This document shows positions 5,980 to 53,101 of a stretch of 53,101 bases of DNA, piece by piece. The notes beneath the pieces were generated by a model. The model made no database searches and was not told the DNA's origin. It saw only the letters and a list, made by a program, of their open reading frames with translations. The translations under genes were made by a program, and so were the position numbers. The stretch comes from Gammaproteobacteria bacterium (lineage in GTDB: Bacteria > Pseudomonadota > Gammaproteobacteria > CAIRSR01): contig CAUYTW010000341.1 in NCBI GenBank assembly GCA_963575715.1, positions 1-53,101 of the forward strand. The letters are read 5' to 3'. How positions within the stretch are numbered: position 1 is the stretch's first letter; each line of letters begins with the position of its first letter.

Positions 5980-6099
5980 AGCAAATGAATTATAGCTGTA
6001 AAATTTCAGTACTGTCAAACTGTTACTATTTTTGAACTATTACCTTAATTTAGAATTTATTAATAAATATAAGTAATGATTAACAAATCAGATACTATG

Positions 6100-6439: not shown

Positions 6440-6447
6440 CTATCCCT

Positions 6448-6467: not shown

Positions 6468-6488
6468 CTTCTCGCGCAATTCGGGCGA

Positions 6489-7187: not shown

Positions 7188-7201
7188 AAAAATTCACCAA
7201 A

Positions 7202-8176
7202 TTATTTTTTTTCCGATTCTTCAGCTGGTTTTCCGGTATCGGCAGAACCAGGCGACAGGCCACCCGCAGGAGAAGGAATTAGACCAGTTCCCGATCCGGC
7301 AGAAGAATCCCAAGGTGAGTAACCACCTTGATTGGAAATAGCCTCTCGATTATCTGAACCAAAGCCATTTTTTTCCTGGCTACCAAAGCCCGAACCCGGA
7401 TTGTTACCCACGTTCGACGGGCCGACATTTTCATATTGATTATTGCCATAACCATTTTTTTCATGAGCGTAAGATGAAGATTCATGGACATTCCCACCTT
7501 GTCCCGCCCAAGATGGTGCTTCATCAGTATCTTGCCTAGGAGAGCCGTAACTTTGATTCATGCTCCAATCGTAACGACCGTTCGATTGGCCTGCGGATTG
7601 GTAGCCGCGACCAGCACCCCAGCCATAACGATCGCCTGGCAGCATACGCCTTTCATCACCTGAATTAATATTGGGATTATTATATTCAGAATTATAATTC
7701 GGATTTCCACTCCATCCTTGTCCGGGAAAAGCCGATCCATACCCTTCATGGGCTGGCCGATTCCTGGAACCACGATTTCCATAACCTGATTCCATTCCGA
7801 ACCCTGAACCATTTCCTCCATCGTAATAACCAGGAGATCTTCCTCCATAATAACCGCTTTGGACGGGAGGGGTTCTATAATTTGGACTTCCATTGTAATT
7901 CGGTTCATAGCCCGATTCAGTACCGCGATCCCAGGGATTGTTGTAACCAACGGACGGGTGATAACCCTGGCTTGGGGAAATGCTATCGTAAGGAGCGCCA
8001 CCCCACGGAACGGACTCCCGACTGCGGGCATAATCGGATCCGTATCCATTTCCCCAGGGAGTTCCATAACCCTGCCAAGGGCCACCGCCATACCCATAGT
8101 CTGCGGCATTGGTCACCGCGATACCGCTCAAACCCACTCCTGCCACAATCCACAGATAGCTATGAAATTGCATCAT
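7202..8176 (-). CDS. Secreted Gly/Tyr/Asn/Ser-rich low-complexity protein
   Basis: 324 residues. The signal peptide MMQFHSYLWIVAGVGLSGIA ends in VTNAA, with cleavage before DYGYGGG. The rest is one low-complexity chain with repeated GYG, YGN, NPWDRG and SGYG elements, no Cys and no recognisable domain, and an acidic/basic end (KPAEESEKK). Composition is like sulfur-globule or silk-like structural proteins. It lies upstream of the similar 232-residue gene. Two ATG codons in a row (8176 and 8173) follow a type II palindromic element whose end reads GAATTTAGATGATG. There is no Shine-Dalgarno sequence other than what that element provides. Confidence 0.65.
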   Translation of the reverse strand: MMQFHSYLWIVAGVGLSGIAVTNAADYGYGGGPWQGYGTPWGNGYGSDYARSRESVPWGGAPYDSISPSQGYHPSVGYNNPWDRGTESGYEPNYNGSPNYRTPPVQSGYYGGRSPGYYDGGNGSGFGMESGYGNRGSRNRPAHEGYGSAFPGQGWSGNPNYNSEYNNPNINSGDERRMLPGDRYGWGAGRGYQSAGQSNGRYDWSMNQSYGSPRQDTDEAPSWAGQGGNVHESSSYAHEKNGYGNNQYENVGPSNVGNNPGSGFGSQEKNGFGSDNREAISNQGGYSPWDSSAGSGTGLIPSPAGGLSPGSADTGKPAEESEKK

Positions 8177-8240
8177 CTAAATTCGGCGCGAAAACCTCGA
8201 GCTTTAGCCATAATGAGGAAGCGCCGCCCTCCTGTTTTTT
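8177..8240 (-). repeat. Type II start-codon-adjacent palindromic element (secreted protein, 8176)
   Basis: Read on the minus strand: AGGGCGGCGCTTCCTC, an inner hairpin with GGCTAAAGCTCGAGG, then TTTTCGCGCCGAATTTAG running into the ATGATG start. The outer arms GGCGC/GCGCC pair. The same order recurs at 21780, 24768 and 33052. Confidence 0.75.
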
Positions 8241-8277
8241 TGACTTTAAAATGAAAAATATAGGTGGCAATTCATTA

Positions 8278-8303
8278 CCCACAATTTTTCAAAATTGTGG
8301 GAA
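8278..8303. terminator. Perfect hairpin between two secreted-protein genes, possible terminator
   Basis: CCCACAATTTT/AAAATTGTGGG with a 2-base loop, followed on the plus strand by AATTTTTTT and on the minus strand preceded by the same A-tract. It sits 42 bases past the stop of the 8345-8875 gene. The T-run is on the plus side, so termination of the minus transcript would rely on the stem. It may instead block antisense transcription. Confidence 0.5.
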
Positions 8304-8344
8304 TTTTTTTAACCACTTTTTTGTCAATCAACGAAAAATTTACT

Positions 8345-8875
8345 TTAATGGCATATGCTTGATTGCTGAAATTGCCGCTGCGAAAAATTAGGCACAAAAC
8401 CAGGATAAGGCACGAAATAACCTTCTGGCGACATCGGACCTGGATAAGCTCCTATGTAGGGAGGAGGCATGAAGGCAGTGCGAGAAGGCCCCCACTGCTG
8501 CATCGTCCAGGGACCAGCACCATAGCCGCCAGTATAGGGGTTGGGAGGACCCCACCTAAAATTTGGATAATGCGGTGGCGGAATCATTCTCTCCGAATAA
8601 AAATCCCATCCATCTGGTGGCATGGGCCGAAAATACCCACCTGGCGGATCGTTCCAATTTTTTGGCGGTGACATATAACCTCCATTTGGAGGAGGTGGTG
8701 GAGGTTCAAACATCCTTTGTCCCTGGTACCAATAGGGCATTGAATAGGAATTATATGGATAATAAGGACGATAGGGCCCAAAATTGGAAGAATAAGGTTG
8801 GGCGCTTGTGAAGGATGAACAAAGCATCATGAGGATGCCGCTAATAATCCATAATGGTTTTGATAAGAAAGTCAT
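8345..8875 (-). CDS. Secreted Pro/Tyr-rich protein
   Basis: 176 residues with a signal peptide (MTFLSKPLWIISGILMMLCSS, cleavage near TSA-QPY). The mature chain is rich in Pro, Tyr, Gly and Phe: PYRPYYPYNSYSMPYWY, a run of six prolines around residue 60, PPPHYPNFRWGPPNPYTGGYG. It resembles Pro/Tyr-rich cell-wall or sulfur-globule (SgpC-like) proteins. No domain is recognised and the last five residues include its only mature Cys. The ATG at 8875 is preceded by a type II palindromic element whose end, CCGAGGATTT, supplies a good Shine-Dalgarno sequence (GAGGA) five bases from the ATG. Confidence 0.65.
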   Translation of the reverse strand: MTFLSKPLWIISGILMMLCSSFTSAQPYSSNFGPYRPYYPYNSYSMPYWYQGQRMFEPPPPPPNGGYMSPPKNWNDPPGGYFRPMPPDGWDFYSERMIPPPHYPNFRWGPPNPYTGGYGAGPWTMQQWGPSRTAFMPPPYIGAYPGPMSPEGYFVPYPGFVPNFSQRQFQQSSICH

Positions 8876-41055: not shown

Positions 41056-41733
41056 TCAGCTTGATAAAGTGGCACTATTTTTTTTAATAACCTTGATGTC
41101 ATGCCCAATGGCCTCCTCAAATGCGATCTGCCGCAGTCCGATCCGTACCACCAAGGCGGGATGGCGCTGTTGCAAAGTAATATCTTCTCCCGGCAATAAT
41201 CCCAAGGTCAAAAGGCGGTGCATACGTTGGGGATCTTTGGTATCCAGCGACATGATTCTAGCCTGTCCACCGATTTCCAATCGAGACAGAGGGATAAATC
41301 TGCTTTCCACTACGCTGCGTCCCTCCTGGCAGCAAACTCCTTCGGGAATAGGCTGTCCGTGCGGACAGGTCATTGGATGCCCCAGTAAGGTGCAAATGGC
41401 ATCCACCAAATCCGTCGCCAGGATGTGCTCGAATTCGCAGGCTGACCCTTCCGTGTCGTGGGGCTGCTTGCCCATGACATCGACAAGCAACCTCTCGGCC
41501 AGCCGATGGCGTCGCACAATATCCCTGGCTCGCTGGTGTCCTTTTTCCGTCAAAATGATGCGTTCCTGCTCCATGCGGAGCATACCGTTACCTTGGAATT
41601 CCTCCAGCCAGTCCTCGTACACATGCTGGGGATCGTGCTGGCGCAAAGAAGGAATGGTTAATTCCTCACGCTCGCGCAAACGCCAGAGCATTTCTAGCAA
41701 TTCATCCCGCCGCAGCTCAGTCTCAAGGTTCAT
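41056..41733 (-). CDS. DtxR/MntR-family metal-dependent regulator with FeoA-like domain
   Basis: 225 residues. N-terminal winged helix (~5-70), a dimerisation domain containing EGSACEFEHIL (metal-ligand Cys, Glu and His as in DtxR/IdeR), CPHGQPIP, and a C-terminal SH3/FeoA-like domain (~150-225, FIPLSRLEIGGQARIMSL then MHRLLTLGLLPGEDI). Such proteins sense Fe2+ or Mn2+ and repress uptake genes. It follows feoB on the same strand, so feoB is the obvious candidate target. A MITE now separates the two genes. Confidence 0.88.
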   Translation of the reverse strand: MNLETELRRDELLEMLWRLREREELTIPSLRQHDPQHVYEDWLEEFQGNGMLRMEQERIILTEKGHQRARDIVRRHRLAERLLVDVMGKQPHDTEGSACEFEHILATDLVDAICTLLGHPMTCPHGQPIPEGVCCQEGRSVVESRFIPLSRLEIGGQARIMSLDTKDPQRMHRLLTLGLLPGEDITLQQRHPALVVRIGLRQIAFEEAIGHDIKVIKKNSATLSS

Positions 41734-41757
41734 TGGTATTCCGTTTTTTGATTTCAG

Positions 41758-41922
41758 TAGTAGTTGCCAGTTAAAAATTGAAAATTTAAGTCATTCTGCG
41801 CGCAGCGAAGCGGAGTCGCAGAATTCATCTACAATAGAAATTCTGCGTTTTGCGACTGCGCACAAAATGATAGAAAAAATTAATTCTGTTATAGCGTTAC
41901 AAATTAAACTGCGTAACTTCTA
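41758..41922. mobile_element. MITE with inverted ends AGTTRCGCAGTT (copy 2)
   Basis: 165 bases between feoB and the DtxR-type gene. Left end TAGTAGTTGCCAGTTAAA (41758-41775) and right end TTAAACTGCGTAACTTCTA (41904-41922) are inverted repeats. The core contains GTCATTCTGCGCG and GTCGCAGAATT, as in the copy at 2080-2245. The element ends seven bases before the feoB stop codon. Confidence 0.7.
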
Positions 41923-41928
41923 TTCAGA

Positions 41929-43962
41929 TCAGATGAAAAGTCGCAATAAATAATTCACCGCCCCGCCTACCAAAAAGGCGATGGCCACGATGGCCAGATT
42001 GGCGACTATACCCCAGCGCAGGCCATATTCTTTAATCATGATCATGGTGTTTGACACGCAAGGCACGAACAGGGTGATCACGACCAAACCAGTGACGATT
42101 TGAACATAATCCAATTCAGCGGCTTCCACCATGTTTTTGAAATAGATCGCACCTACTTCGCGTCGAGCAAGAACCAGGATGAGAACTTCAGTCGCTTTAT
42201 CCGGCAAGGCAAGAAAATTGGTTACAAGCGGATGCATCATGGTCTTGATGCCGTTCAACAGGCCGGTCTGTTGCAAAATGAACATGGCCACGGCGGCAGC
42301 GGCGAACATCGGGATGGCTTCTAACAGAAACCATTTGAGCCGGTAGTAGGTCTTGCGCAGAATGTTGCGACCATGCGGCCAATGAAAGGATGGCAGCTCC
42401 AGAATGAAATCGGCACGTCCTTCACCGGAGGAGAGCAAATGGTTCATGAGCAAACCGCAGATTAGAGTGGTGCCGGTTACCACTCCAAGAACAATCAACA
42501 AGGCGGAAAAGGGCATGGTAGCCAGAATGGCCAGAAGAATACCCATTTGCACCGAGCAGGGAACCCCTAACGCCACTAGAAAAGAAAGTAGCAGCCGTTC
42601 CTTCCTGGTCTCCAGGATACGACTTGCCATGGTAGCGGTAGTATTGCAACCGGTTCCTAGCACCATGGGCAACACCGCCTTGCCGGTCAATCCCATAGGA
42701 GTCAGTACGCGGTTAGCCAACACGCTTAAATTGGGCAAATAACCCACATCTTCAAGAAAGTTCACGATCAAGAAAAAAATTGCCAGAATCGGCACTACGG
42801 TGACCATGGCATTGGCTACCCCCATGGTCAGCACGCCGAACTGTCCTACCAGGAACTCCTGAAGAAAGGGTTGGGTAACCCATACACCGATTTTTTGCGT
42901 GATGGGAGAAAAGATCCAGGTATCCAGCCATCCACCCAGATCCGTTGCTCCCAACCCCACACCCTTGAAAGTAAGCCAAAGGATGGCAAAAAAAATTGGC
43001 CATCCGAGCACGGGGTGGCGCGAGGCCCAGGCTAATTTTTGCACAAGGGTGGGCATGACATGACGGGCTTGCCGCATCACCTCGTTGACCTGGCGTTTCG
43101 CCCATGCCTCCCGGGCTTGAAACAGCGCAAGGTCCATGCCTGGTGTGCGTGACCGGAATTCATCCACCATGCGCCGAGCTTGGGCGAACACCTCCACGCC
43201 CAAGGCTTTGGTGAAATCATCCGCCACTTGTTTCTCAGCTCCCTGAAGAAATAACAAAAGTCGCGCACGGGAGGGACGAAGATCCACAGGAAACAAGCTG
43301 ACTAGCTGATTCATCGCCTCTTCCACCCGCGACGGATAGGTAATCGGGACGGGGGACAAACGATATTTTCTCTCGCCTTCCAGATATTCCTCCATGGTTT
43401 TCCGCAGAATATCCAATCCAATTCCGTGTTCTGCGGCCATTTCAATCACCGGTATGTCCAGCCGCACGGAGAGCAATTCACTGTCAATAACCACGCCATG
43501 ACTAGCGGCCTCGTCTTCCTTATTGAGGCAAAATATTACTGTCTGCTCCAACTCCAAAATTTGCACCAACAACATCAAGGATTGTTTAAGATACATGGCA
43601 TCGCCACAAAACAAGATGCCGTCTGGTTTTTCCTTAATCAAGACATTGAGGGTAATTTCCTCGTCAGGCGATTGCACACGCAAGCTGGCAAGGCCAGGAG
43701 TATCAACCAACTCAACCTGACGGTTATTTATCGTGACTCGCTGTCGTGTTGCCTCTACCGTAGTCTGAGGATAATTAGCCACGATGGAATAAGCACCGGT
43801 CAGTCCGTTGAACAGCACACTCTTGCCAGAATTGGCCGGGCCGATAATTACCCATCTACTCCGCATTCCCGAAATTTTGTTCAGGACATGGATGCTTGTC
43901 AGGGTGTTGCAGGCACATGCCAGCGTATTGCGATTGCATGTCAGGGTATTACAGTCACTCAT
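41929..43962 (-). CDS. feoB: Ferrous iron transporter FeoB with Cys-rich N-terminal extension
   Basis: 677 residues from the ATG at 43962. The G domain has GPANSGKS (G1), TTVEATRQ (G2 Thr), DTPG (G3) and NKED (G4). A helical region and a large TM domain (from ~320) follow, with the two Gate-type repeats (VLPMVLGTGCNTTATMASRILET and a later counterpart). FeoB imports Fe2+. The first 33 residues are unusual: a seven-residue unit repeats three times (CNTLTCN, RNTLACA, CNTLTSI) and adds Cys. Most FeoB proteins begin directly before G1, so an alternative start is the ATG at 43866. No feoA gene is adjacent, but the DtxR-type gene downstream carries a FeoA-like domain. Confidence 0.88.
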   Translation of the reverse strand: MSDCNTLTCNRNTLACACNTLTSIHVLNKISGMRSRWVIIGPANSGKSVLFNGLTGAYSIVANYPQTTVEATRQRVTINNRQVELVDTPGLASLRVQSPDEEITLNVLIKEKPDGILFCGDAMYLKQSLMLLVQILELEQTVIFCLNKEDEAASHGVVIDSELLSVRLDIPVIEMAAEHGIGLDILRKTMEEYLEGERKYRLSPVPITYPSRVEEAMNQLVSLFPVDLRPSRARLLLFLQGAEKQVADDFTKALGVEVFAQARRMVDEFRSRTPGMDLALFQAREAWAKRQVNEVMRQARHVMPTLVQKLAWASRHPVLGWPIFFAILWLTFKGVGLGATDLGGWLDTWIFSPITQKIGVWVTQPFLQEFLVGQFGVLTMGVANAMVTVVPILAIFFLIVNFLEDVGYLPNLSVLANRVLTPMGLTGKAVLPMVLGTGCNTTATMASRILETRKERLLLSFLVALGVPCSVQMGILLAILATMPFSALLIVLGVVTGTTLICGLLMNHLLSSGEGRADFILELPSFHWPHGRNILRKTYYRLKWFLLEAIPMFAAAAVAMFILQQTGLLNGIKTMMHPLVTNFLALPDKATEVLILVLARREVGAIYFKNMVEAAELDYVQIVTGLVVITLFVPCVSNTMIMIKEYGLRWGIVANLAIVAIAFLVGGAVNYLLRLFI

Positions 43963-43986
43963 ATATCACGGATTATTTGTTTCTTG

Positions 43987-44841
43987 TTAAGAGCATGATA
44001 AAATTTCCTTCATTTCATCGCTTATATCACGAAAATCCGTTTCCGTAATATCGAAAATTTCTAGTATTTTTCCTCCAGTCCGTTTCCACATGCCTTCTTC
44101 ATAACGTGCATGGAATTCATCGGAAAAATGTTCGGCAAGTGTTAAAAAACCGATTTTTTTGGCCAATGCATCATTCTGTTTATTTATTAATAATAATTCA
44201 TCATGGTGATGCAACACTATCTCACGAATCTCTTCCGGCAAGAACCAGGATCGCGTCACAAAATAGCCAACCACTGAATGATTAGTATTAAAAATTTTAT
44301 CCTCCGTGATCGTAATAGATTCTTGCGAATTTGTATTAGCCTGACGCAATATGTCAATATAATTAGAAAAGCGCTGCATTAAAATAGGAATACCACAATC
44401 ATGAAATAAACCAAGCATATAAGCATGGTCGGGTGTCATTATCCTAAGGCGTCGCGCCAATACTGCGCAAATCGTGGCCGTATCCGTGGCTCCATCCCAA
44501 AAATGTTCTAGTTTTACTTTATCTCTACCGGACGACATGGTCATTCGCAGTAAAAGACCAGTAACTAAACTCATGCTATTCGCAAGTCCCAATAAAATTA
44601 CCGCCTGGGAAATCGAAGTGACTTTTTTACGCAACCCAAAAGCTGGCGAATTAGCAGCCCGCAGCATGGCGGCTGAGAGTCCCACATCCTTAGACACTGC
44701 GGCAGCAATTTTATGTAGATCCGGATTGGCTCGTTGTTGTTCCCTCATGACAACATTCAGCACCGCAGGTTGAGGGGGGATATCGATCCCTTTCAAAAGT
44801 TGGGCAACGGCATTGTCGTCAAAGGTCTGAATGATGGTCAT
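43987..44841 (-). CDS. HDOD-domain protein
   Basis: 284 residues from the ATG at 44841 (preceded by GAGG at suitable distance). An HDOD domain spans ~15-215: PPQPAVLNVVMREQQRANPDLHKIAAAVSKDVGLSAAMLRAANSP is the usual opening, and FGLRKKVTSISQAVILLG follows. HD-like His residues are present in AYMLGLFHDCG and VLHHHDEL. HDOD proteins are non-enzymatic signalling scaffolds often linked to chemotaxis and cyclic-di-GMP. It lies 24 bases upstream of feoB. Upstream in-frame codons to 44898 fall in a direct repeat and are probably not translated. Confidence 0.85.
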   Translation of the reverse strand: MTIIQTFDDNAVAQLLKGIDIPPQPAVLNVVMREQQRANPDLHKIAAAVSKDVGLSAAMLRAANSPAFGLRKKVTSISQAVILLGLANSMSLVTGLLLRMTMSSGRDKVKLEHFWDGATDTATICAVLARRLRIMTPDHAYMLGLFHDCGIPILMQRFSNYIDILRQANTNSQESITITEDKIFNTNHSVVGYFVTRSWFLPEEIREIVLHHHDELLLINKQNDALAKKIGFLTLAEHFSDEFHARYEEGMWKRTGGKILEIFDITETDFRDISDEMKEILSCS

Positions 44842-44850
44842 CAGTGCCTC

Positions 44851-44901
44851 AGTACAGGATTTAATAACAATAACTCCTAGTACAGGATTTAATAACAATA
44901 A
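44851..44901. repeat. Direct repeat upstream of the HDOD gene
   Basis: The 23-base sequence AGTACAGGATTTAATAACAA plus TAA occurs twice (44851-44873 and 44879-44901) with a 28-base period, in the leader of the HDOD gene. It could be an operator with two sites or a recent duplication; it is too short to tell. Confidence 0.7.
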
Positions 44902-44971
44902 AAATAAATTTTTTTGAAAATGCAGAGAATTCTATTTTCATCTGTTTGTATTTTTATCTTACTGCTAATCT

Positions 44972-45322
44972 TCAAACTACAGGATTTTCTGCCATGCGAT
45001 ACTCAATCATCGTCAACATGAAAATTAAATCCTGGCTGTCGCGCTTTAATTCATCAAGAGCGACTTCTGCTTCTACATAATTTTGTTCCTTGAAAAGTTT
45101 TACAAGTAAATCTGCATTTTCATGAAAATGCTTGTGGCGCTTTTCGAGAAATGACATTTCAGGATATTTCCCATATTTTTTGATTCCTTCGTTATAAATC
45201 CAAATTCCCAATTCACATGATTTGTAGGATTGTAAATGCGGACTAGCATCTTGTCGCAATAACGTTTCTAATTGCAGCAGCCATTTGAGATGAATTAATC
45301 TTGCCCTAGAAATGTCTATCAT
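44972..45322 (-). CDS. Stand-alone CZB (chemoreceptor zinc-binding) domain protein
   Basis: 116 residues forming just a CZB domain: H11 in RLIHLKWLL, YKSCELGIWIYNEGIKKYG (Cys 36), and KRHKHFHENADLL (His 63 and 67), the three-His-one-Cys zinc set. CZB modules are usually attached to receptors or diguanylate cyclases and release zinc or respond to oxidants. Here it is separate and lies 17 bases after the cation-exporter gene, so it could report metal status to a partner protein. Confidence 0.8.
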   Translation of the reverse strand: MIDISRARLIHLKWLLQLETLLRQDASPHLQSYKSCELGIWIYNEGIKKYGKYPEMSFLEKRHKHFHENADLLVKLFKEQNYVEAEVALDELKRDSQDLIFMLTMIEYRMAENPVV

Positions 45323-45339
45323 AAATTTATTGCCTGTCT

Positions 45340-46311
45340 TTATTTTGCGACTGAGGAAGGATTGCTTGGTTTATTGACCATATTGGCGCGTGGCATCGAA
45401 AATAAATGACTTTTCCAATAGTCATCTTCTTCATTATCTCTTGATTCTTGTGGAACCGTGACAACCCAAACATGCTTTACCTTTGGAAAATTTGCCAGAA
45501 TCCGTTTTTTCAAATGAATCACGATGTCGTCTCCTTCACGAATCGTGATATTTTCATCAAGAGCAATGTGCAGATAAATTTCCCAATACTCACCAAGACT
45601 ACGACCACGAATTAACTTTACATCATGAACGCCCTGAGTTATCCGAACAGCACGGGCCATGTCGGACAAAGTTTCTTGTGACACAGACACATCCAGTAAA
45701 CCATTAATCGCATCCCAGGCGATCATCACACCGATTCTGACCACCATCAATACAATAACAAATGCAACAATTTTTTCTGCGGTGGGAATGCCGGCGTTTG
45801 ATAACAAGTTTCCAATTAGCACCATGACAGATGAAATTGCATCGACACGATTATCCAGCGAGGCTGATTTAATCGCTGAATTATTATTTTCTTTGGCAAC
45901 ACAGCTCATGAAATGGTACATAAATTCACTAGCGGATGCTGACAGCATAATGCCAAAAATTGTCACCATAGGATGTACTGACTGCACGCCCTCAACTCCA
46001 GTAAAAATTGTCAGACCCAGTGATACACCTCCAATCAGCAACCCCACGCCAATAATTAAGGAAGAGACGAACAGAATTTTCCCATAGCCAAATGGAAATT
46101 TTTTGCTGGGTGGCCGATTAGCAATTTGCACGCTAACCAACGTAACCACTTTTGCAAGAGCATCGCCAAAAGAATAAAGCCCCTGGACCACCAATCCCAA
46201 ACTACCGGATACCCACCCAAGAATGGTTCGGAAGATTGCCTGGGTTAGCGTACAGAACAAATCCGTCCATCCAGCTTGCATCACGCATTTTTTACAATGT
46301 TTGTATTTCAT
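45340..46311 (-). CDS. Cation diffusion facilitator, MamB/MamM-like
   Basis: 323 residues. It has six TMs and a C-terminal cytoplasmic domain (~210-300). The N-terminus MKYKHCKKC (C6, C9), followed by ILGWVSGSLGLVVQGLYSFGD and PFGYGKILFVSSLIIGVGLLIGG, is close to the magnetosome transporters MamB and MamM. The TM5 metal site is retained as DNRVDAISS, while the TM2 site is YSFGD with only one Asp. Family members export Zn2+, Fe2+ or Mn2+ from the cytoplasm. MamB-like CDFs also exist outside magnetosome islands, and no other mam gene is seen here. It is followed by the lone CZB protein. Confidence 0.85.
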   Translation of the reverse strand: MKYKHCKKCVMQAGWTDLFCTLTQAIFRTILGWVSGSLGLVVQGLYSFGDALAKVVTLVSVQIANRPPSKKFPFGYGKILFVSSLIIGVGLLIGGVSLGLTIFTGVEGVQSVHPMVTIFGIMLSASASEFMYHFMSCVAKENNNSAIKSASLDNRVDAISSVMVLIGNLLSNAGIPTAEKIVAFVIVLMVVRIGVMIAWDAINGLLDVSVSQETLSDMARAVRITQGVHDVKLIRGRSLGEYWEIYLHIALDENITIREGDDIVIHLKKRILANFPKVKHVWVVTVPQESRDNEEDDYWKSHLFSMPRANMVNKPSNPSSVAK

Positions 46312-46490
46312 TGATTTTTATTTTCTGGTTATTGTCTAATACTGGGTATTAATCGGTGCATAAATTAAGGCGACACCTGAAAAATTATTGGATAAGCTGT
46401 AGCTTGATTCTTGAATTTTCAACGTGTCACCTAACCAAAGCACAGATTAATATATAGATTCAATGTAAACCAAGGTATCGCATTGGTGTT

Positions 46491-46868
46491 TCAGTATACT
46501 CTTGTCCCGTAAAAACTTCCCGCCGAGTCAAATACAAGGCCATAGTCACTTTCATTAAACATTTGTATCAATCCCAAGATATCTTCTGATTGAAGTTTAT
46601 CAAATTGCAGTCCATGCAAAGGTTCCATTTTCCACAACACGCACGCACCCACTTCAATCGCGGAAGCCATTGTTGGCAATTTGAAATTAAGCTTTACCAC
46701 CTGACCGATGGCAAACGATTCAGGACTTGCTATTTTTATTCCTCCAATACTTATATCTACCGACATTCCAGTAAATATTCCATGTTCGGTCATGATTTTG
46801 ACTGGAAAATTACACTTGAAGCGTGGATGTGAGCGTTTTTCGTAGAAACTGCTTTCTGAATTCTTCAT
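46491..46868 (-). CDS. PilZ-domain protein
   Basis: 125 residues, one PilZ domain, the cyclic-di-GMP receptor fold: the RSHPRFKC motif (RxxxR type, slightly shifted), then SVDISIGGIKIASPE (D/NxSxxG motif) and GLQFDKL. It is probably a small c-di-GMP-responsive adaptor. It lies downstream of the PilZ-GAF gene on the same strand, with a type I palindrome about 50 bases before its ATG. Confidence 0.8.
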   Translation of the reverse strand: MKNSESSFYEKRSHPRFKCNFPVKIMTEHGIFTGMSVDISIGGIKIASPESFAIGQVVKLNFKLPTMASAIEVGACVLWKMEPLHGLQFDKLQSEDILGLIQMFNESDYGLVFDSAGSFYGTRVY

Positions 46869-46914
46869 TATTTAGCAATTATTCCCTATTTATCCGTGAT
46901 TTCAGCGTTTTCAA

Positions 46915-46961
46915 CAAAGTCTCCGAGAAGCGCCCTGGCTTTAGCCGTGGGGTTCTTGACT
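46915..46961 (-). repeat. Type I palindromic element overlapping the PilZ-GAF stop codon
   Basis: Minus strand: GTCAAGAACCCCACGGC, TAAAGCC, then AGGGCGCTTCTCGGAGACTT. The TAA in the loop GGCTAAAGCC is the stop codon of the upstream PilZ-GAF gene. The usual TGATG after GGAGAC is TTGTTG here, and the PilZ gene starts ~48 bases later. Confidence 0.75.
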
Positions 46962-47789
46962 GGTTCTAAACTTAATAAGATTGGCAATTATTGCCGCCGC
47001 CGCCAAAAGAAAATTTTCCTCATTTCTGTCTTGAACATGTCCATCGGGAACATATATATTCAATACTCCAAGAAGTTCCGAATCGTCAAGAATTGGCACA
47101 CAATAATGACCATGAGGCATCATGTCGTCATAGACAGTAACATGATCTTTATGAACATGATTACTAAAGACAATCTTTTTTAATTGTGCGGCACGACCGC
47201 ATAAACATTGACCAATAGGGACCTTGTTGCAAAGTATTTGTAAATCTTGAGCGTTTATACTTGTTTCCATTCGTAAAATCTGTTCCTGCCTGTCAAATGA
47301 GAATATTGATCCTTTATACTCAAGCGAACACCATGAAACTGTTAATATTATTTCAAGAGCAACCTCCAGTTGTCTATCAAGAGATAATTTGCTCAAAGTA
47401 GTTTCGAGAAGTGCATTAATGGCAATCCGTGATTGAATTGCCAACATTTCGTTATATCCTTCAATATCCAGGATCATGTCAATAAACCGTTTCAGTCCGT
47501 CGATATCTTTTGTTTTAAGCCCTATAAATTTGACTCCAATGGTTCTTTCATTATTTGAATTAACTCTTGAGCGAACCTCAGTATCATGAATCATGAATGG
47601 CAGTCTAAAACGTATATTAAAAATAGTATTTAAATCAATCTGTTTATTGTTGTCCATGATAATCAGCATTCCTTCAAAGCCTATATTCATCGCTATCCCA
47701 TCAAGTTCATCACCTCCTGTTATTATTTTTACTGGAAGATTACACGAATACCTTGGATATTCTCTAAGTTCTTTTATTCTACCTATCAT
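46941..47789 (-). CDS. PilZ-GAF domain protein
   Basis: 282 residues. Residues ~5-115 are PilZ-like (REYPRYSC, then MNIGFEGMLIIMD where the second motif would be, so it is partly degenerate). Residues ~125-275 are a GAF domain (LEVALEIILTVSW, GQCLCGRAAQLKKIVFSN, HGHYCVPILDDSELLGVLNIYVPDG). GAF domains bind small ligands; here Cys and His residues around IGQCLCG and DMMPHGHYC could bind a metal or nitric oxide. The last seven residues (TSQEPHG) and the stop codon are encoded by a palindromic element, so the original C-terminus was probably lost. It lies next to a second PilZ gene. Confidence 0.75.
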   Translation of the reverse strand: MIGRIKELREYPRYSCNLPVKIITGGDELDGIAMNIGFEGMLIIMDNNKQIDLNTIFNIRFRLPFMIHDTEVRSRVNSNNERTIGVKFIGLKTKDIDGLKRFIDMILDIEGYNEMLAIQSRIAINALLETTLSKLSLDRQLEVALEIILTVSWCSLEYKGSIFSFDRQEQILRMETSINAQDLQILCNKVPIGQCLCGRAAQLKKIVFSNHVHKDHVTVYDDMMPHGHYCVPILDDSELLGVLNIYVPDGHVQDRNEENFLLAAAAIIANLIKFRTSQEPHG

Positions 47790-47879
47790 TTTGATTCATC
47801 CTAAGCGTGGAATTGAAACAGATAAATAATTTTCCAGAAATTATCTTGTTAAGGTAATTTCAGTTCCAGTTCAGGTGAT

Positions 47880-48737
47880 TCAACAGTTGGAAGATCCAAA
47901 AATACTTGCTTCCAATTTAAGATCATTGATGGAGTTAATTAAAGCAAAGGATATTTCAAAATAATTGCCTTGCTCGATCATTACCTCTGCATCAGTGAAT
48001 CTTTTTTCATTAATCGCCTTTACAATATCTCCAGCATACTTGTGAAATTCAGTATGTTTAGCGATACAGATATGGTAAGTAGAAAATTGCGAATAATGTT
48101 TTTTTGCCTCACCATGCAGCCATTTACCAAAAGTACACTGATCATCCGTAAATACGGTCTCATCATTAATGATTTCCTTTTTATTAATTGCAATAATCAG
48201 CTTTTTTTTCCAGTCTATATGAGATTGAATAGCGAAGTTCAGATCAATATTTATTTTTCTTTCCATGTTGCGAGTACTATCCAGAGTAACGGTTCTCATG
48301 ACGCTGGCCACAATTCCATCTAGGACCGAATTAGCGCCACTCAAGTTGATATGGATCAGATTGGCGTTTGTAAAATTAGCGTTAGTCAAAATGGTATCAT
48401 ATAAGCATGCGTCAACCAGATTGGCATTAGTAAAATTGGTATTAGTCAGATTGGCATGATATAGTTTAGCGCCAATTAAATTAGCGCCAGTAAAATTAGC
48501 ACCAATTAAATAAGCGCCAGTAAAATTGGCACCAATTAAATAAGCACCCGCAAGATTAGCGCCAGCTAGATTAATATTTTCTGCATCAATATCCATCATA
48601 TTTGCATTGGCCAAATCTGCATTACATAAGCTGACATATCTTTTCTTGGCCGCTTCAACCGTCGTCTTAATAGTGTTATTTTCAACATTATAGGAGAATA
48701 ACACAAGCCCATCTATTGATCTGATTTCAATTTTCAT
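47880..48737 (-). CDS. Pentapeptide-repeat protein fused to a C-terminal CZB domain
   Basis: 285 residues. Residues ~38-140 are pentapeptide repeats (A(N/D)LxG-type: LAGANLAGAYLIGANFTGAY, NLTNTNFTNANLVDA), which fold as a right-handed quadrilateral beta-helix. Residues ~160-280 match the zinc-binding CZB domain: a His in QSHIDWKKKL, Cys in DDQCTFGKWLHGEAKKHYS, and His in KHTEFHKYA. CZB domains normally occur on chemoreceptors and diguanylate cyclases. I do not recall this combination. It lies downstream of the ZorB/MotB-like gene and could be a zinc-responsive regulator of it. The 190 bases upstream (48738-48931) are AT-rich without visible structure. Confidence 0.8.
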   Translation of the reverse strand: MKIEIRSIDGLVLFSYNVENNTIKTTVEAAKKRYVSLCNADLANANMMDIDAENINLAGANLAGAYLIGANFTGAYLIGANFTGANLIGAKLYHANLTNTNFTNANLVDACLYDTILTNANFTNANLIHINLSGANSVLDGIVASVMRTVTLDSTRNMERKINIDLNFAIQSHIDWKKKLIIAINKKEIINDETVFTDDQCTFGKWLHGEAKKHYSQFSTYHICIAKHTEFHKYAGDIVKAINEKRFTDAEVMIEQGNYFEISFALINSINDLKLEASIFGSSNC

Positions 48738-48931
48738 TATGATATCGTTACCAATTAATTAAATGTGCATACAGTAAAGTATCATTCTTTTTTAATCAAA
48801 AATTGCGTTGTGCTGGATAATTGTAACAGTAATAATTACTCTATCATTTTTTGATCAGTCCATGTACCAACATACTAAAATTCTTCAAAAACTTTAATTA
48901 ATTTTATTACAGGCTTATGGTTTGTGTATTT

Positions 48932-49915
48932 TTATGGTTTTGGCTGTGGTTCTATAGTATTCTCATTGTTGAGGGTTCCGAGCTTCTGAATTAATCGATC
49001 TAGACCTTCAAAGACCTGCGGGATAGCGGAGGGAGGTTTCGGATTGACCATAAAAAAACGAATGTCGATGCGTCGATTTGCCGCTTCTGGCGTTGGGCTG
49101 GAATGGGCAATGATTGGTCGATATTCTCCATACCCGCTGATGCCGAATATTGGTTGACCTTTTTGGTTGTGCAGTTCTGAGAAGTTGGATTCTTTGCCAG
49201 AAGCCATCACTAGAATTTCAAAAGTCTTAATGGCCCGCATACTGGAGAGATGAAGATTATTGGTATAGCGCTTTGAATTAGTGAGCGGTACATTGTCGGT
49301 ATGTCCCTCAATGTAAATTGCATCTAGGGTACCTGGATTCCATTTTCTATCCGCACAGAAGGACGGTCGACGCATATCGTCGTCAACTGATCCGCTATAA
49401 CATGGTAAGTGATATCGCATAACCTGCGCCAATTTTTTTAGAATTTCTTCGCCGCCAGGTACGAATTGATCAGAGCCTAAGGGAAACAGAATTTCTCCCG
49501 GAAAACGTAAAATTCCATGATGCGGATCAATAAATACACGTAAATTTTCCTTGACCTGTAAATCTTGCTGAATATCCGTCAGCAACTGCGACAATAATTG
49601 AGCTGTCTTAGCAAGTTGCATATCAACATCTTGCTTGAGATTGGATGCAAGATCACGCAGCTCAAGCATTCCGGTTTCCAAATTTTTTAATTTTTCTTCA
49701 TTCGCGGTATTGATTTGTTTTAATCGTTCTCGCTCTTCCGAGACTTGTATTGATTCTGAGCGATAATCACTTTCGGAAACACTCATATTGACGGAAAACA
49801 TAATCAAAATTAAAATAAAAACAAACAACAACGCAGACATGACATCGCTAATGGACAAGGAAAAATCCATAGCGATGTATTGTTGTGTCTGTACGTCCAG
49901 TTTGCGTTTATACAT
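48932..49915 (-). CDS. ZorB/MotB-like OmpA-domain motor protein
   Basis: 327 residues. One TM (~22-46, SDVMSALLFVFILILIMFSV) carries D24 at the position of the proton-carrying Asp of MotB/ZorB, in the ZorB-like context SISDVMSALLF. A coiled coil (~50-110) follows, then a peptidoglycan-binding OmpA domain with LRFPGEILFPLGSDQFVPGG, a Cys pair in LPCYSGS and RRPSFCA, LDAIYIEGHTDNVPL, LSSMRAIKTFEIL and GYGEYRPI with NRRIDIRF. The Cys insertion and these motifs fit ZorB of Zorya systems and the related orphan motor proteins rather than flagellar MotB. Upstream (minus strand) are a CheY-like gene and the long ZorA-like protein. The usual ZorC/D/E genes are not found downstream. Confidence 0.8.
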   Translation of the reverse strand: MYKRKLDVQTQQYIAMDFSLSISDVMSALLFVFILILIMFSVNMSVSESDYRSESIQVSEERERLKQINTANEEKLKNLETGMLELRDLASNLKQDVDMQLAKTAQLLSQLLTDIQQDLQVKENLRVFIDPHHGILRFPGEILFPLGSDQFVPGGEEILKKLAQVMRYHLPCYSGSVDDDMRRPSFCADRKWNPGTLDAIYIEGHTDNVPLTNSKRYTNNLHLSSMRAIKTFEILVMASGKESNFSELHNQKGQPIFGISGYGEYRPIIAHSSPTPEAANRRIDIRFFMVNPKPPSAIPQVFEGLDRLIQKLGTLNNENTIEPQPKP

Positions 49916-50207
49916 ATAAATCCGCCGCTAATGCTTGTCGCCGGCCTTCCCTGGCAGGATCCGACGCATTGTAGAGTTTATTTTAACCGGTAATGCCGGT
50001 GTTGCGATGGCAGTACCGGAATACGGGCATCCTATGAAGCGTACACCATTGCGAACGCAGATTTATGATTTATTTTTTTCGATGCTGATAAAAGTTACGT
50101 AATCGAAAAAATAAATTAACATTTTAATCGATTCAAAGGATAATCTTTTAGTAACTTTTTAGCGAAATCAAATGATTAAAATTTAACTGCGTAACTCCTA
50201 AACCATT
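49916..50207. other. Non-coding stretch between the CheY-like and ZorB-like genes, with MITE end
   Basis: 290 bases without a gene. TTTAACTGCGTAACTCCTA (50182-50200) matches the right end of the two MITEs, and AAAGTTACG (50091-50099) may be the decayed left end, giving a ~110-base deletion derivative. The rest, next to the zorB-like start, includes CCGGTAATGCCGG but no convincing promoter. Confidence 0.5.
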
Positions 50208-50609
50208 TTAGTTTTCCAATACTGTTGGATTCTTTTTAGCCATAACCTCTTGGATTCGTTTTGCCAAGGCATCAATACTGAATGGTTTTACCACATAACC
50301 ATCAATACCGGCCTGCAAAGCAGCAACAACATGCTTTTTGTCCGCATTGCCGGTAATCATGATGAATGGGATATTTTTCAATCGCCCGTCTTCCTTGATC
50401 CAAAGTAGAAGTTTATGACCATTGATTTCAGGCATTTCCCAATCACACAGTATCAGATCCACTGGTTTGTTATTTAGGATAATCTGGGCCTGGCGACCGT
50501 TGCCGGCTTCTATTATTTCGATTTGAGGAAAAATCTCAACGAGTCCAAAACGTATGAAACTGCGAATAGCACCAGCATCGTCGATAACCAATACTTTAAG
50601 ATTTTTCAT
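50208..50609 (-). CDS. CheY-like single-domain response regulator in the motor locus
   Basis: 133 residues, one receiver domain: VLVIDDAGAIRSFI (D10, D11), phospho-acceptor D56 in LILCDWEMPEINGH, ITGNADK, and the lysine in GYVVKPFS. There is no output domain. It sits between the ZorA-like and ZorB-like genes on the same strand, which I have not seen in Zorya loci. Its position suggests that phosphorylation regulates the motor as CheY regulates flagella, but the partner is not shown. The ATG at 50609 follows a type I element end (TTCGGAGACACTG). Confidence 0.85.
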   Translation of the reverse strand: MKNLKVLVIDDAGAIRSFIRFGLVEIFPQIEIIEAGNGRQAQIILNNKPVDLILCDWEMPEINGHKLLLWIKEDGRLKNIPFIMITGNADKKHVVAALQAGIDGYVVKPFSIDALAKRIQEVMAKKNPTVLEN

Positions 50610-50660
50610 CAGTGTCTCCGAAAAAACCCGCTTGCGCGGATTTCACAATAAAATTTCTTC
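50610..50660 (-). repeat. Type I start-codon-adjacent palindromic element (CheY-like gene of the motor locus)
   Basis: Minus strand: GTGAAATCCGCGCAAGCGGG, TTTTTTCGGAGACACTG, then ATG. The stem CCGC/GCGG is shorter than in other copies; the GGAG ribosome-binding site and GACACTGATG end are identical to the flhA copy. Confidence 0.7.
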
Positions 50661-50741
50661 GCACAGCGACGAAGCTAGTCAATTTGAAGACTTGCTTTCA
50701 CCAGCCTCACCCCTTATAGCTGGATATTTAACAGAATTACC

Positions 50742-53101
50742 TTACTCGTTTCCACGCTCCAAGATGGATATTATCAAATCATTAATTTCATTTAATCTAC
50801 CATTAAAATTAATGGTTGCTTCACGTAACTGCCTGGAGACATTTCCCATATGTTCATCAACACCTCCAATAAATTCCAGAATTTTTTCAGATGAGAATTC
50901 AGATAAGTCATTATTGATATAGGCCATGGTCTGCTGCATTGAGGTACTCACTCGATCAATATGACGTTTGGTATAGGACATGCTTTCCTGTATGGAATTA
51001 TTTACCTGATTAAAGTGGACTTGATGACTATTCAATGTTGTATCCATTCTACTTTGCATCAGATTGATCATTGATTGTATACGATTATAGGTCTCTCCGA
51101 TGATAGTTTTTGTTTCCTCATATTGATTCTGGATATTGCCATGAGCCGTGGAAACAACAGCAGCCAATCCTGTTAGATTCTCTATGCTGGCATGAATTTT
51201 TTCACCAGCCTGAGCAATTTGACGCGAGGTGTCTTCCATGGATTGAAGTGATAAAGATTGCGCCGTAGTCTTCTCCAAAAAAACACTCATGACTTTGGAC
51301 AGCGTATGAATTATGGTTTCATTGTCACGATTGTGAGTATTGTTGTGGACCATGGAAATGGCAGTAGTCAACCCATTAAGGGTCGCCATGCTGGAATGGA
51401 TCTTTTCACCAACCTGGGCGATTTCCCGAGAAGTGTCATGCATGGATTGAATCGACAAAGATTGATCCGGCATTTTTTCCAAAAATACATTCATAGTACC
51501 GTTCATGCTGTCCAATTTAACGCCAAAACCACCGATGACGTAACTCAGCTTCTCCGTAATGTTACCCATCTGATTTACTCCATTAACAAAGTTTGCCACT
51601 CGCTCGGAGAACATCTGAAGTCCACTTTTAAGATGGATAAAAGTTCTTTCAAGCGAATTGTTCACCTGTTCAAAACGATTCTCATAATCATGCCACATGA
51701 CACGTAACTGTTCGTAGGCATTGAGAATAGCACCTAAGGTCTGACGAGCGGTTTCTTGAGTGGCTGACAAGGCATCGGCGACCGCTTCCATCTTAGTGGT
51801 ACTGTTTTGCAACTTTTCTCCCGCCATCTCCATCATCATCGCGCCGGATTCCATAATTTCTATCAGATGACCAAAACGATTTTGCGCCTGACCGAAGCTA
51901 TTGGAAAACTGAATCATGGTCTCCATGAGATGACTTAGCTGTGCTACCAGATCCGTCTTAGTGCTGACAATTCCTACGGTCAGCTCACCAATCGCGTGAC
52001 TCAAGGGCGCAATTGCCTCCCGCAACGCTGTCTGCCCCGCGATTCCAGACTGAGCCTTGATTTCTTGCATCCACCGGAACAGCTCTTCCATCTGATTGAT
52101 ACGCTGCTGCTCAATATGACTGTCAAGCGTTGAGCAAGTCTCGGCGAAACGAGAAATCATATCATTGTTCAAATGGTGTAATCCTGCGGTCATTTCCGTA
52201 TTGTTCTGGGAGAAATGGTCTAAGAAGTTCGAGAAGAAATTGGCCAGGCCAAACATAGTTTCTTCGAGCTTTTCCGTTGCATTCAAGAACAGCTGCCCTG
52301 CACTGACCATGGATGCGCTCAACTGGCCTGAATCTTGGCGCGCCTCACTGCGGGATTGTTCCATGAACTGGATCAAGGATTGAAGCATGGCATCATTGTC
52401 ATTGCGTACCCGCATCTGGGTTTGATCCAAGAACGCCAACTTTTCACTCACGCCCCCTTGGAAACGTTCCAGCAGTTTTTCGGTCGCGGCCACTAATTGG
52501 GGAGCAGTACCAAGGAAACGCTGCATTTCTTCTTGCGCAGCCATCATGGCGTGCGACGATTGGGAAAGAGTAGTGAGAGTTTGATTCAACTGTCCGCCAA
52601 AACCAATCGCTGTCTGACTCAGCATGGTAACCATCTCGCCTTGAGCTGATTTCATGCTTTCCGCTACGGTGGCCAAATCAGTAACAGTGCGCGCCATGTT
52701 GCCGGCAAAGCCCGCCGATGAATCGCGCAGCAGCGCGGCCAGTTCCATTTGGGCGTTTCTCATCCCTTCGGCCACTGCGGATAAATCAGCAAGGGTGCGA
52801 TCCTGACGATCACTCATGGATACAGAAGAATCGCGCATCAACATGCCCATTTCTCGCAGAGCCGCCTGCATACCTCCAGCCGCAGCAGCCAAATCGGTAA
52901 TAGTACGTGCCATCACGACCGCTAAATCGGTGACGGTACGCTCCTGACGGTCGCCCATGGACACGGATGAATCGCGCATCAGCACACTCATTTCCCGCAG
53001 AGCCGCCTGCATCCCTGTGGCCACAGTAGCCAAATCAGTAACAGTGCGCGCCATGTTGCCGGCAAAGCCCGCCGATGAATCGCGCAGCAGCGCGGCCAGT
53101 T
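50742..53101 (-). CDS. ZorA/MotA-like long-tail protein (partial; N-terminus off window)
   Basis: At least 786 residues, open to the window edge; an ATG at 53054 is internal to repeats and not the start. The visible part is wholly helical and coiled-coil-like, rich in Met, Gln, Ser and Thr. Its beginning has 36-residue repeats (RTVTDLATVATGMQAALREM then SVLMRDSSVSMGDRQE) at ~2-37, 49-84, 85-120 and 121-156, plus a single 11-residue insert (RTVTDLAVVMA). Two stretches 357 bases apart are near-identical in DNA, including a 54-base match (52688-52741 and 53045-53098), a sign of recent duplication. No TM is in the window. ZorA proteins have a MotA-like membrane part and a long intracellular tail before ZorB, and this gene has the right place and tail. 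The membrane part must be checked upstream. Confidence 0.6.
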   Translation of the reverse strand, partial: LAALLRDSSAGFAGNMARTVTDLATVATGMQAALREMSVLMRDSSVSMGDRQERTVTDLAVVMARTITDLAAAAGGMQAALREMGMLMRDSSVSMSDRQDRTLADLSAVAEGMRNAQMELAALLRDSSAGFAGNMARTVTDLATVAESMKSAQGEMVTMLSQTAIGFGGQLNQTLTTLSQSSHAMMAAQEEMQRFLGTAPQLVAATEKLLERFQGGVSEKLAFLDQTQMRVRNDNDAMLQSLIQFMEQSRSEARQDSGQLSASMVSAGQLFLNATEKLEETMFGLANFFSNFLDHFSQNNTEMTAGLHHLNNDMISRFAETCSTLDSHIEQQRINQMEELFRWMQEIKAQSGIAGQTALREAIAPLSHAIGELTVGIVSTKTDLVAQLSHLMETMIQFSNSFGQAQNRFGHLIEIMESGAMMMEMAGEKLQNSTTKMEAVADALSATQETARQTLGAILNAYEQLRVMWHDYENRFEQVNNSLERTFIHLKSGLQMFSERVANFVNGVNQMGNITEKLSYVIGGFGVKLDSMNGTMNVFLEKMPDQSLSIQSMHDTSREIAQVGEKIHSSMATLNGLTTAISMVHNNTHNRDNETIIHTLSKVMSVFLEKTTAQSLSLQSMEDTSRQIAQAGEKIHASIENLTGLAAVVSTAHGNIQNQYEETKTIIGETYNRIQSMINLMQSRMDTTLNSHQVHFNQVNNSIQESMSYTKRHIDRVSTSMQQTMAYINNDLSEFSSEKILEFIGGVDEHMGNVSRQLREATINFNGRLNEINDLIISILERGNE

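What the first reader, a model, noticed from the sequence alone, without database searches (positions are those of the whole stretch)
48932..53101. Zorya-like motor pair with a CheY-like receiver between the motor genes
A ZorB-like OmpA protein (TM Asp D24, Cys-containing OmpA domain, IEGHTDN) is preceded by a very long helical-tail protein in the ZorA position. Zorya uses such a proton-driven motor for phage defence together with ZorC/D or ZorE. None of these is seen. Instead a CheY-like receiver lies between the motor genes, and PilZ and zinc-binding proteins follow. This suggests a signal-controlled long-tail motor, possibly for force generation, gliding, envelope sensing or a defence variant, not described in this form to my knowledge.
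Basis: partly seen in the sequence, partly recalled or inferred. Interest (0 to 1): 0.75.

Follow-up and report, generated by a model that had tools for sequence, protein, structure and literature searches.

The report
Giant Zorya-type motor in magnetosome island
The window ends inside a two-gene molecular motor related to the anti-phage system Zorya, but with a far longer internal tail and no phage-killing partner genes, and in this bacterium and its relatives it sits among the genes that build the cell's internal magnets, so it probably moves, holds or senses the magnets rather than fighting viruses.

Summary
Window 48932-49915 is a type I ZorB (TM Asp24, peptidoglycan-binding OmpA domain). 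50742-53101 is the distal tail of ZorA, cut by the contig end. Its MotA-like head lies at the end of another contig of the same genome (G000:C51). A canonical CheY receiver (50208-50609) separates tail and ZorB, in this genus only.

The system belongs to a clade (100/100 support) found here only in magnetotactic bacteria: 16 of 48 Magnetococcales genomes and 4 of 4 genomes of the window's gammaproteobacterial family. All 15 complete members have giant ZorA (1154-1610 aa; 60 other ZorA are at most 801). Where contigs allow, the genes mostly lie in the magnetosome island: 12 of 16 are 9.8-23 kb from mamK, and one relative has mamK-M-N-O-A-Q-B-S, feoB, flhG, zorA and zorB on one contig. ZorD is absent from the loci. 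Most members keep a ZorC-like protein ending in an HPt-like domain; the window's genus lacks it.

Best reading: a magnetosome-island motor or tether under receiver control, not phage defence. Function is inferred. Koziaeva 2019 noted three of these genes as unknowns; no paper in the library links Zorya to magnetosomes.

The parts
50742..53101 (-). ZorA, distal part of the cytoplasmic tail (785 aa, 5' end cut by the contig end). The MotA-like head is on G000:C51 (L007:2-1354, minus)
   Evidence: PADLOC ZorA1 E=1.9e-14; head ZorA1 E=2.7e-24; conserved distal tip ...EFSSEKILEFIGGVDEHM... in the relatives; helix-only low-confidence AlphaFold model
52632..53101 (-). Direct repeats (141 bp and 113 bp units) of the ZorA spacer at which the assembly stops; C51 ends in the same repeat
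   Evidence: the repeat finder; contig-end comparison (no overlap, same repeat module)
50208..50609 (-). CheY-like single-domain receiver between zorA and zorB
   Evidence: Response_reg E=1.6e-24; ortholog in G001 at the same place, 74% identical, purifying selection
48932..49915 (-). ZorB: one TM helix with Asp24, coiled linker, OmpA/peptidoglycan-binding domain
   Evidence: PADLOC ZorB1 E=3.7e-67; PDB best hit 8vvn_B, type I ZorB, E=7.7e-25; D24 invariant
47880..48737 (-). Pentapeptide-repeat + CZB (chemoreceptor zinc-binding) protein, downstream neighbour
   Evidence: Pfam; not found in the fetched relatives, role in the system unknown
46941..47789 (-). PilZ-GAF protein, downstream neighbour
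   Evidence: Pfam; not found in fetched relatives
46491..46868 (-). PilZ protein, downstream neighbour
   Evidence: Pfam; not found in fetched relatives
45340..46311 (-). MamV/MamB-like CDF metal transporter (magnetosome CDF family)
   Evidence: NCBIfam MamV E=3.3e-115 (384.6 bits, under its 500-bit cut-off), MamB E=1.7e-78
44972..45322 (-). CZB protein
   Evidence: Pfam
43987..44898 (-). HDOD protein; an HDOD-FeoB pair also lies next to a ZorAB-like pair in a Magnetococcales magnetosome island (L182)
   Evidence: Pfam
41929..43962 (-). FeoB ferrous-iron transporter; FeoB lies close to zorAB in G003 and several Magnetococcales islands
   Evidence: TIGR00437 E=9.2e-100; neighbourhoods
41056..41733 (-). 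DtxR/MntR-FeoA-like regulator, also close to zorAB in G003, L058, L064 and L065

Best explanation
This is a giant-tail ZorA-ZorB motor of the magnetosome island of a magnetotactic gammaproteobacterium. Shown here: ZorB has the ion-binding TM Asp24 and a peptidoglycan-binding OmpA domain. ZorA has three TM segments with the conserved Ser/Thr (GTF, TS/AS) motifs, then a helical spacer built from variable numbers of about 36/72-aa repeats, then a conserved distal tip. The pair sits with mam genes, feoB, an HPt protein and a STAS-like protein in the island (on one contig in a relative, by synteny in the window's genome). It has no ZorD, and in this genus a receiver is present and ZorC is not. Inferred from the solved Zorya structures: five ZorA around two ZorB form an ion-driven unit anchored in the cell wall, whose bundled tail projects into the cytoplasm. 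If it were one continuous helix, the 914-1370-residue tails would be about 140-205 nm long (over 260 nm in G001). Inferred mechanism: the tail tip engages a magnetosome or magnetosome-cytoskeleton component, or a partner recruited to it. Ion-driven rotation, or simple tethering between wall and tip, positions or holds magnetosomes against the envelope. The receiver, and elsewhere the HPt-like ends of ZorC, link this to two-component or chemotaxis signalling. The step 'acts in magnetosome or magnetotaxis biology rather than phage defence' is the main claim. The positioning or tethering step is the most likely form of it, but unproven.
For: Identity: PADLOC ZorB1 3.7e-67, ZorA1 2.7e-24; PDB relatives 8vvn and 8qyd-type ZorA/ZorB. 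Magnetotactic host: MamK over its cut-off in 4/4 family genomes and in 0 of 14 control genomes. One contig of G003 carries MamK, M, N, O, A, Q, B, S and ZorA-ZorB. In G000, C33 carries mamH-E-K-M-N-O-A-Q-B-S, and conserved order in G001 and G003 puts it before C51 and the window. Association: 16/48 Magnetococcales have the giant clade (E<=1e-145, next best 1e-41); 12 of 16 lie 9.8-23 kb from MamK and one more contig has MamE and MamH. Only 4 of 369 Gammaproteobacteria have it, all in this family. Clade support 100/100. Tail length 1154-1610 aa versus at most 801 aa in 60 others. In the window's genus mam genes follow the host family (MamB 84% to G003, 47% to Magnetococcales) but ZorA/ZorB follow Magnetococcales (65/69% versus 45%), so the pair was exchanged and still lies in the island. 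More diverged ZorAB-like pairs lie in the islands of G077, G084 and G090. No ZorD at the loci. HPt in 9/11 giant-clade ZorC. Purifying selection on ZorA, ZorB and CheY.
Against: No experiment links any of these genes to magnetosomes. 30 of 46 MamK-bearing Magnetococcales genomes lack the giant clade, probably including cultured chain-formers (a 4.7-Mb genome with MamK near position 2.9 Mb of one contig and no hit resembles strain MC-1; my inference), so it is not essential for magnetosomes. Two giant loci (G066, G103) have no mam gene on the contig stretches read, and a third (G060) is on a 7-kb contig. Neighbourhood can be inherited rather than functional. Tail tip partners are unknown. The PilZ/CZB genes of the window are not conserved near relatives' zorAB. 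In the window's assembly the link between C33, C51 and the window is inferred from the split ZorA and synteny; the contigs do not overlap.
Confidence: 0.5

Rival explanations
1. It is a divergent anti-phage Zorya that happens to sit in the magnetosome island and still defends the cell, with another effector in place of ZorD.
For: ZorA, ZorB and, in most relatives, a ZorC-like protein with EH signature are homologous to Zorya I. Magnetosome islands are mobile and repeat-rich, as defence islands are. ZorAB was exchanged horizontally between Magnetococcales and the window's genus.
Against: ZorD is missing at all loci read and ZorC is missing in the window's genus; in tested Zorya I each component is needed for protection (PMC11890865). 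The clade is confined to magnetotactic genomes in the searches made, and several of the same genomes carry separate ordinary Zorya-like genes elsewhere. The 4/4 occurrence in the family is unlike an accessory defence system.
Confidence: 0.2
2. It is a mechanosensor: magnetic torque on magnetosomes pulls the long tail and changes the state of the wall-anchored ZorAB unit, which signals through the HPt and CheY proteins to the flagellar motors (active magnetoreception).
For: Receiver between the motor genes in the window's genus; a CheY directly after ZorC in L056; HPt-like ends of giant-clade ZorC; an HPt and a STAS-like gene upstream of zorA, directly or a few genes away, in G000, G003, L056, L057 and L071.
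Against: The HPt phospho-histidine position is not conserved in most ZorC members. CheY between the genes is confined to one genus. Magnetotaxis is generally taken to be passive alignment plus aerotaxis (established view, from memory).
Confidence: 0.13
3. It energises iron or envelope transport for magnetite formation, as ExbBD/TonB or TolQR do, using the proximity to FeoB, DtxR and the CDF transporters.
For: feoB, a DtxR-like gene and a MamV/MamB-like CDF lie close to zorAB in several islands.
Against: The partner domain is a peptidoglycan binder, not a TonB-type energiser, and the extra length is all on the cytoplasmic side. feoB is a usual member of magnetosome islands anyway.
Confidence: 0.09
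4. It is a chance neighbour: a non-functional or selfish remnant carried along in a variable genomic island.
For: Assembly breaks, repeats and a pseudogenised second island copy with a zorB fragment in G001.
Against: Open frames, strong purifying selection (ZorA head dN/dS 0.05; ZorB pN 0.07 against pS 0.81), conserved tip and motor residues, and separate entry of different ZorAB lineages into islands.
Confidence: 0.05

Closest known systems
Zorya type I (ZorABCD)
   Same: ZorA with MotA-like head and helical tail, ZorB with TM Asp24 and peptidoglycan-binding OmpA domain; most relatives keep ZorC with the EH signature
   Different: Spacer-expanded tail (1154-1610 aa against at most 801 aa in 60 others); ZorD absent; ZorC absent in the window's genus and otherwise ending in an HPt-like bundle; receiver between the motor genes; in the magnetosome island
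The three unnamed genes in the magnetosome island of Ca. Magnetaquicoccus inordinatus UR-1 (WP_130470120-122; Koziaeva et al. 2019, PMC6783814)
   Same: They are members of this clade (L064): EH-signature = ZorC-like, MotB = ZorB, apolipoprotein-like = giant ZorA of 1609 aa
   Different: The paper did not recognise Zorya and knew them in UR-1, WMHbinv6 and WMHbin3 only; here they are found in 16 Magnetococcales genomes and a gammaproteobacterial family
MotAB flagellar stator and other ion-driven motors (ExbBD, TolQR, GldLM)
   Same: Ion-driven unit design, TM Asp, Ser/Thr ring motifs, and an OmpA-type wall anchor as in MotB
   Different: Very long cytoplasmic tail, Zorya-type ZorA profile hits, not in a flagellar stator operon; MotA_ExbB Pfam score only marginal (22.4-22.9 bits at a cut-off of 22.9)
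MamK, MamJ and MamY magnetosome-positioning proteins
   Same: MamK is encoded in the same island; the inferred role (arrangement of magnetosomes) overlaps
   Different: Cytoskeletal or membrane scaffold proteins, not ion-driven wall-anchored motors; mamJ and mamY are reported absent in Magnetococcales (PMC6783814)

Membership tests
ZorAB-type ion-driven motor | ZorB with TM Asp and C-terminal OmpA/peptidoglycan-binding domain | tested here: met
   D24 invariant in 17 sequences; PADLOC ZorB1 3.7e-67; PDB 8vvn_B E=7.7e-25
ZorAB-type ion-driven motor | ZorA with three TM segments and MotA-like Ser/Thr motifs | tested here: met
   On G000:C51, TM at 20-38, 152-170 and 190-208; GTF and AS/TS motifs conserved; PDB 8vvn_C E=4.3e-21
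ZorAB-type ion-driven motor | Long helical cytoplasmic tail of ZorA | tested here: met
   No further TM in the window tail, hydrophobic periodicity 3.5-3.7 as in ordinary ZorA, helix-only model of low confidence (pLDDT 54.7)
ZorAB-type ion-driven motor | 5:2 assembly and ion flow | not testable with these tools
   Known for Zorya I and II structures (PMC11890865); not testable by sequence
Zorya type I anti-phage system | ZorC encoded with ZorAB | tested here: not met
   Window's genus has no ZorC of this clade; only a distant copy elsewhere (C301, E=1e-12). G002 and G003 have it. Magnetococcales have an EH-signature protein matching only about the first 310 of 462 positions
Zorya type I anti-phage system | ZorD helicase encoded with ZorAB | tested here: not met
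   No strong ZorD hit on any contig with a giant ZorB; two weak helicase hits lie 18-20 kb away (G057, G103)
Zorya type II or III | ZorE, or ZorF and ZorG, next to ZorAB | tested here: not met
   No such gene among the window proteins 41056-53101 scanned or on C51 by Pfam and PADLOC
Zorya anti-phage system | Protection against phage | not testable with these tools
   No experiment possible
Magnetosome island component | Located with mam genes | tested here: met
   G003 on one contig; 12/16 Magnetococcales within 9.8-23 kb of mamK, one more with mamE and mamH. For the window itself by MamV-like gene, feoB and synteny only
Magnetosome island component | Restricted to genomes with magnetosome genes | tested here: met
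   All 20 genomes with the clade have MamK over cut-off; 4 of 369 Gammaproteobacteria carry it, all in the family.
Magnetosome island component | Needed for magnetosome formation, arrangement or magnetotaxis | not testable with these tools
   No phenotype data
Flagellar stator MotAB | MotA/MotB family over cut-off, in motility operon | tested here: not met
   MotB models far below cut-offs; MotA_ExbB marginal; an FlhG-like gene is adjacent but no stator or che operon surrounds the pair
CheY/receiver-controlled system | Intact receiver and phosphotransfer partner | tested here: inconclusive
   Receiver residues intact. HPt-like domains are close by, but the phospho-His is not conserved in ZorC and no cognate kinase was identified

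The most novel reading that the evidence does not exclude
Magnetotactic bacteria have recruited a Zorya-type, wall-anchored, ion-driven motor with a rod of roughly 140-260 nm to move, place or mechanically couple their magnetosomes, possibly feeding magnetic torque into chemotaxis signalling. To my knowledge it would be the first ion-driven motor dedicated to a bacterial organelle and the first non-defence role of the Zorya family.
Probability: 0.38. Interest if true: 0.93.

Novelty: new variant of a known kind. Interest (0 to 1): 0.77.

Why it matters
How magnetosomes are placed and mechanically coupled to the envelope in magnetotactic cocci and gammaproteobacteria is an open question; Koziaeva et al. 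2019 note that MamJ and MamY are absent in the cocci and that other mechanisms must have evolved. A wall-anchored motor with a very long rod, encoded in the same island, is a concrete and testable candidate. It would also show that the Zorya motor was taken out of phage defence into cell biology, and that annotation of these loci as anti-phage ZorAB by defence finders is misleading.

Tried and rejected
Rejected: a complete Zorya on the missing side of the contig (C51 read; no ZorC, D or E). Rejected: an ordinary flagellar stator (MotA/MotB models below or at cut-off). Rejected as a general trait: CheY between the motor genes; absent in G002, G003 and all Magnetococcales loci read. Contig-end overlap between C33, C51 and the window: none. 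AlphaFold of the distal tail gave only low-confidence helices (pLDDT 54.7), not used for detail. Foldseek of the ZorC-like model gave no significant whole-chain hit; its C-terminal four-helix bundle aligns with CheA P1 HPt domains (1tqg TMt 0.85, rmsd 1.5; 3kyj TMt 0.70) but at E about 0.15-0.5, so it is support only. Paper searches for magnetosome + Zorya found none; the library lacks most subscription journals. dS was saturated for ZorB and CheY, so only pN and pS are given; the 'ZorAtip' row of that call was run in the wrong frame and is discarded. Rfam found nothing in the window.
Full report
WHAT IS THERE. On the minus strand the window's right end reads zorA (tail, 50742-53101, cut), cheY (50208-50609) and zorB (48932-49915), then pentapeptide-CZB, PilZ-GAF, PilZ, a CDF transporter, CZB, HDOD, feoB and a DtxR-like regulator down to 41056. 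The window is one complete contig (C341) of a 3.70-Mb, 363-contig genome. PADLOC places the proteins in type I Zorya: ZorB1 E=3.7e-67, ZorA1 tail E=1.9e-14. The missing head of ZorA is on contig C51, which ends in the same repeat module; it has three TM segments, the MotA-like GTF and AS motifs and ZorA1 hits at 2.7e-24. Upstream on C51 come an FlhG/MinD-like ATPase, an HPt protein with one TM, a STAS-like protein, a 241-aa protein and a ParA-like protein. The sister genome G001 has the same order, with FlhG 2 bp before zorA, cheY 20 bp before zorB, and a ZorA of at least 2005 aa on two contigs.

WHERE IT IS. The CDF transporter at 45340-46311 is of the magnetosome family (NCBIfam MamV 3.3e-115, MamB 1.7e-78, below the equivalog cut-offs). 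All four genomes of the window's family have MamK over cut-off, none of 14 control genomes does. In G003 one 27-kb contig carries, in one direction, mamK, mamM, mamN, mamO, mamA, mamQ, mamB, mamS, then the 201-aa homologue of the 241-aa protein, STAS-like, HPt, feoB, flhG, DtxR-like, zorA and zorB, and a zorC fragment. In the window's genome the mam genes are on C33, which runs mamH-E-K-M-N-O-A-Q-B-S and ends shortly after the 258-aa gene that in G001 precedes the ParA-like gene of C51. So C33, C51 and the window are consecutive by synteny, though the contig ends do not overlap. Two genomes of the family are named uncultured Thiotrichales MAGs in NCBI.

WHO ELSE HAS IT. In 48 Magnetococcales genomes 46 have MamK over cut-off and 16 have this ZorB clade at E<=1e-145, with the next best at 1e-41. 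Of the 16, 12 lie 9.8-23.0 kb from mamK on the same contig, a thirteenth contig (L058) has mamE and mamH, one contig is only 7 kb, and two (G066 beside ribosomal genes, G103) show no mam gene on the stretches read. Random placement within 23 kb of one of about three mamK-like genes in a 4-Mb genome has a chance of roughly 0.035 per locus; relatedness reduces the independent cases, but about five separated branches are involved. Only 4 of 369 Gammaproteobacteria carry the clade, all from this family.

HOW IT DIFFERS FROM ZORYA. The ZorB tree puts all 17 rows in one clade, 100/100 support, with a long stem. All 15 complete ZorA are 1154-1610 aa; 60 proteins in the ZorA position of other genomes are at most 801 aa. 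Conservation is high in the head (up to 0.76) and the distal tip (up to 0.74) and low (0.1-0.3) in a spacer of 36/72-residue repeats. The tip holds two similar modules...GLQEFSDKVLQFIAGVDDHM... and ...DLSEFSSEKILEFIGGVDEHM.... At 1.5 A per helical residue, tails of 914-1370 residues would span about 140-205 nm, if continuous. ZorD is absent from the loci. ZorC is present in G002, G003 and most Magnetococcales but matches ZorC profiles only over the first two thirds; the rest is HPt-like (Pfam Hpt in 9 of 11, best 8e-9; four-helix bundle in a pLDDT 82.8 model resembling CheA P1), with the phospho-His position not conserved. In the window's genus this ZorC is missing and CheY stands between zorA and zorB.

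WHY A MAGNETOSOME FUNCTION. In the window's genus the mam genes and island neighbours are closest to the host family (MamB 84% against 47% for Magnetococcales; MamO 70/44; FlhG 71/none; HPt 49/29), but ZorA and ZorB are closest to Magnetococcales (65% and 69% against 45%) and nest inside them. The pair was exchanged on its own and is again in the island. More diverged ZorAB-like pairs sit in the islands of G077, G084 and G090; those of G077 and G084 have no acidic residue in the ZorB TM segment, so there the wall-to-cytoplasm link may be kept without the ion drive. This favours a tethering or positioning role. ZorA, ZorB and CheY are under purifying selection. Several of the same genomes keep ordinary Zorya-like genes elsewhere. 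All components of Zorya I are needed for protection in tested systems (PMC11890865), and this locus lacks two of four.

WHAT IS KNOWN. Koziaeva et al. 2019 (PMC6783814) reported three island genes in UR-1 (EH signature, MotB, apolipoprotein-like), also in two relatives, with no known homologues in magnetotactic bacteria. They are ZorC-like, ZorB and giant ZorA (L064). That paper also states that mamJ and mamY are absent in these cocci, that UR-1 magnetosomes are clustered rather than chained, and that other mechanisms of assembly and positioning have evolved. No paper in the held library contains both magnetosome and Zorya.

VERDICT. Identity as a ZorAB-type motor: near certain. Membership of the magnetosome island in the family and in most Magnetococcales carriers: strong; for the window itself by synteny. 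A role in magnetosome placement, tethering or magnetotaxis signalling: inferred, about even odds. Phage defence remains the main rival.

Noticed in passing
L036:7759-9831 (G000:C293): A second ZorB in the window's genome is directly preceded by a 432-aa receiver + coiled + C-terminal TM protein, not by ZorA; the matching ZorA is on another contig (C177), while in G001 and G002 the two genes are adjacent.
   Followed up: partly
L182:14329-16700; L183:4511-6951; L184:118-3794: Diverged ZorAB-like pairs with short tails (ZorA 398-484 aa) in magnetosome islands of three other Magnetococcales; two of the ZorB proteins lack the TM aspartate, the third is an 827-aa ZorB.
   Followed up: partly
L064:6719-7990 and alignment A5: Giant-clade ZorC-like proteins end in an HPt-like four-helix bundle, whereas an ordinary ZorC (L072) matches the ZorC profile to its end; the phospho-histidine is often lost.
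   Followed up: partly
G000:C244:14219-15214 (L145): A second MamK-like actin (384 bits, just under cut-off) beside a 1759-aa protein that starts like a carrier-domain (NRPS-like) protein, with no mam genes recognised nearby.
   Followed up: no
window 4468-8875: A run of small secreted-looking proteins rich in Gly, Tyr, Pro and Asn (146-324 aa) on the minus strand, with long overlapping antisense frames.
   Followed up: no
G001:C201 (L038, L147): Degraded second copy of magnetosome genes with a broken MamK, transposase-like genes and zorB fragments, next to an intact HPt/STAS/ParA/MamB stretch.
   Followed up: partly
window 50639-50690 and L007 right end: An intergenic sequence before cheY resembles one before the ParA-like gene at the end of C51; possibly a small repeated element that also breaks the assembly.
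   Followed up: no
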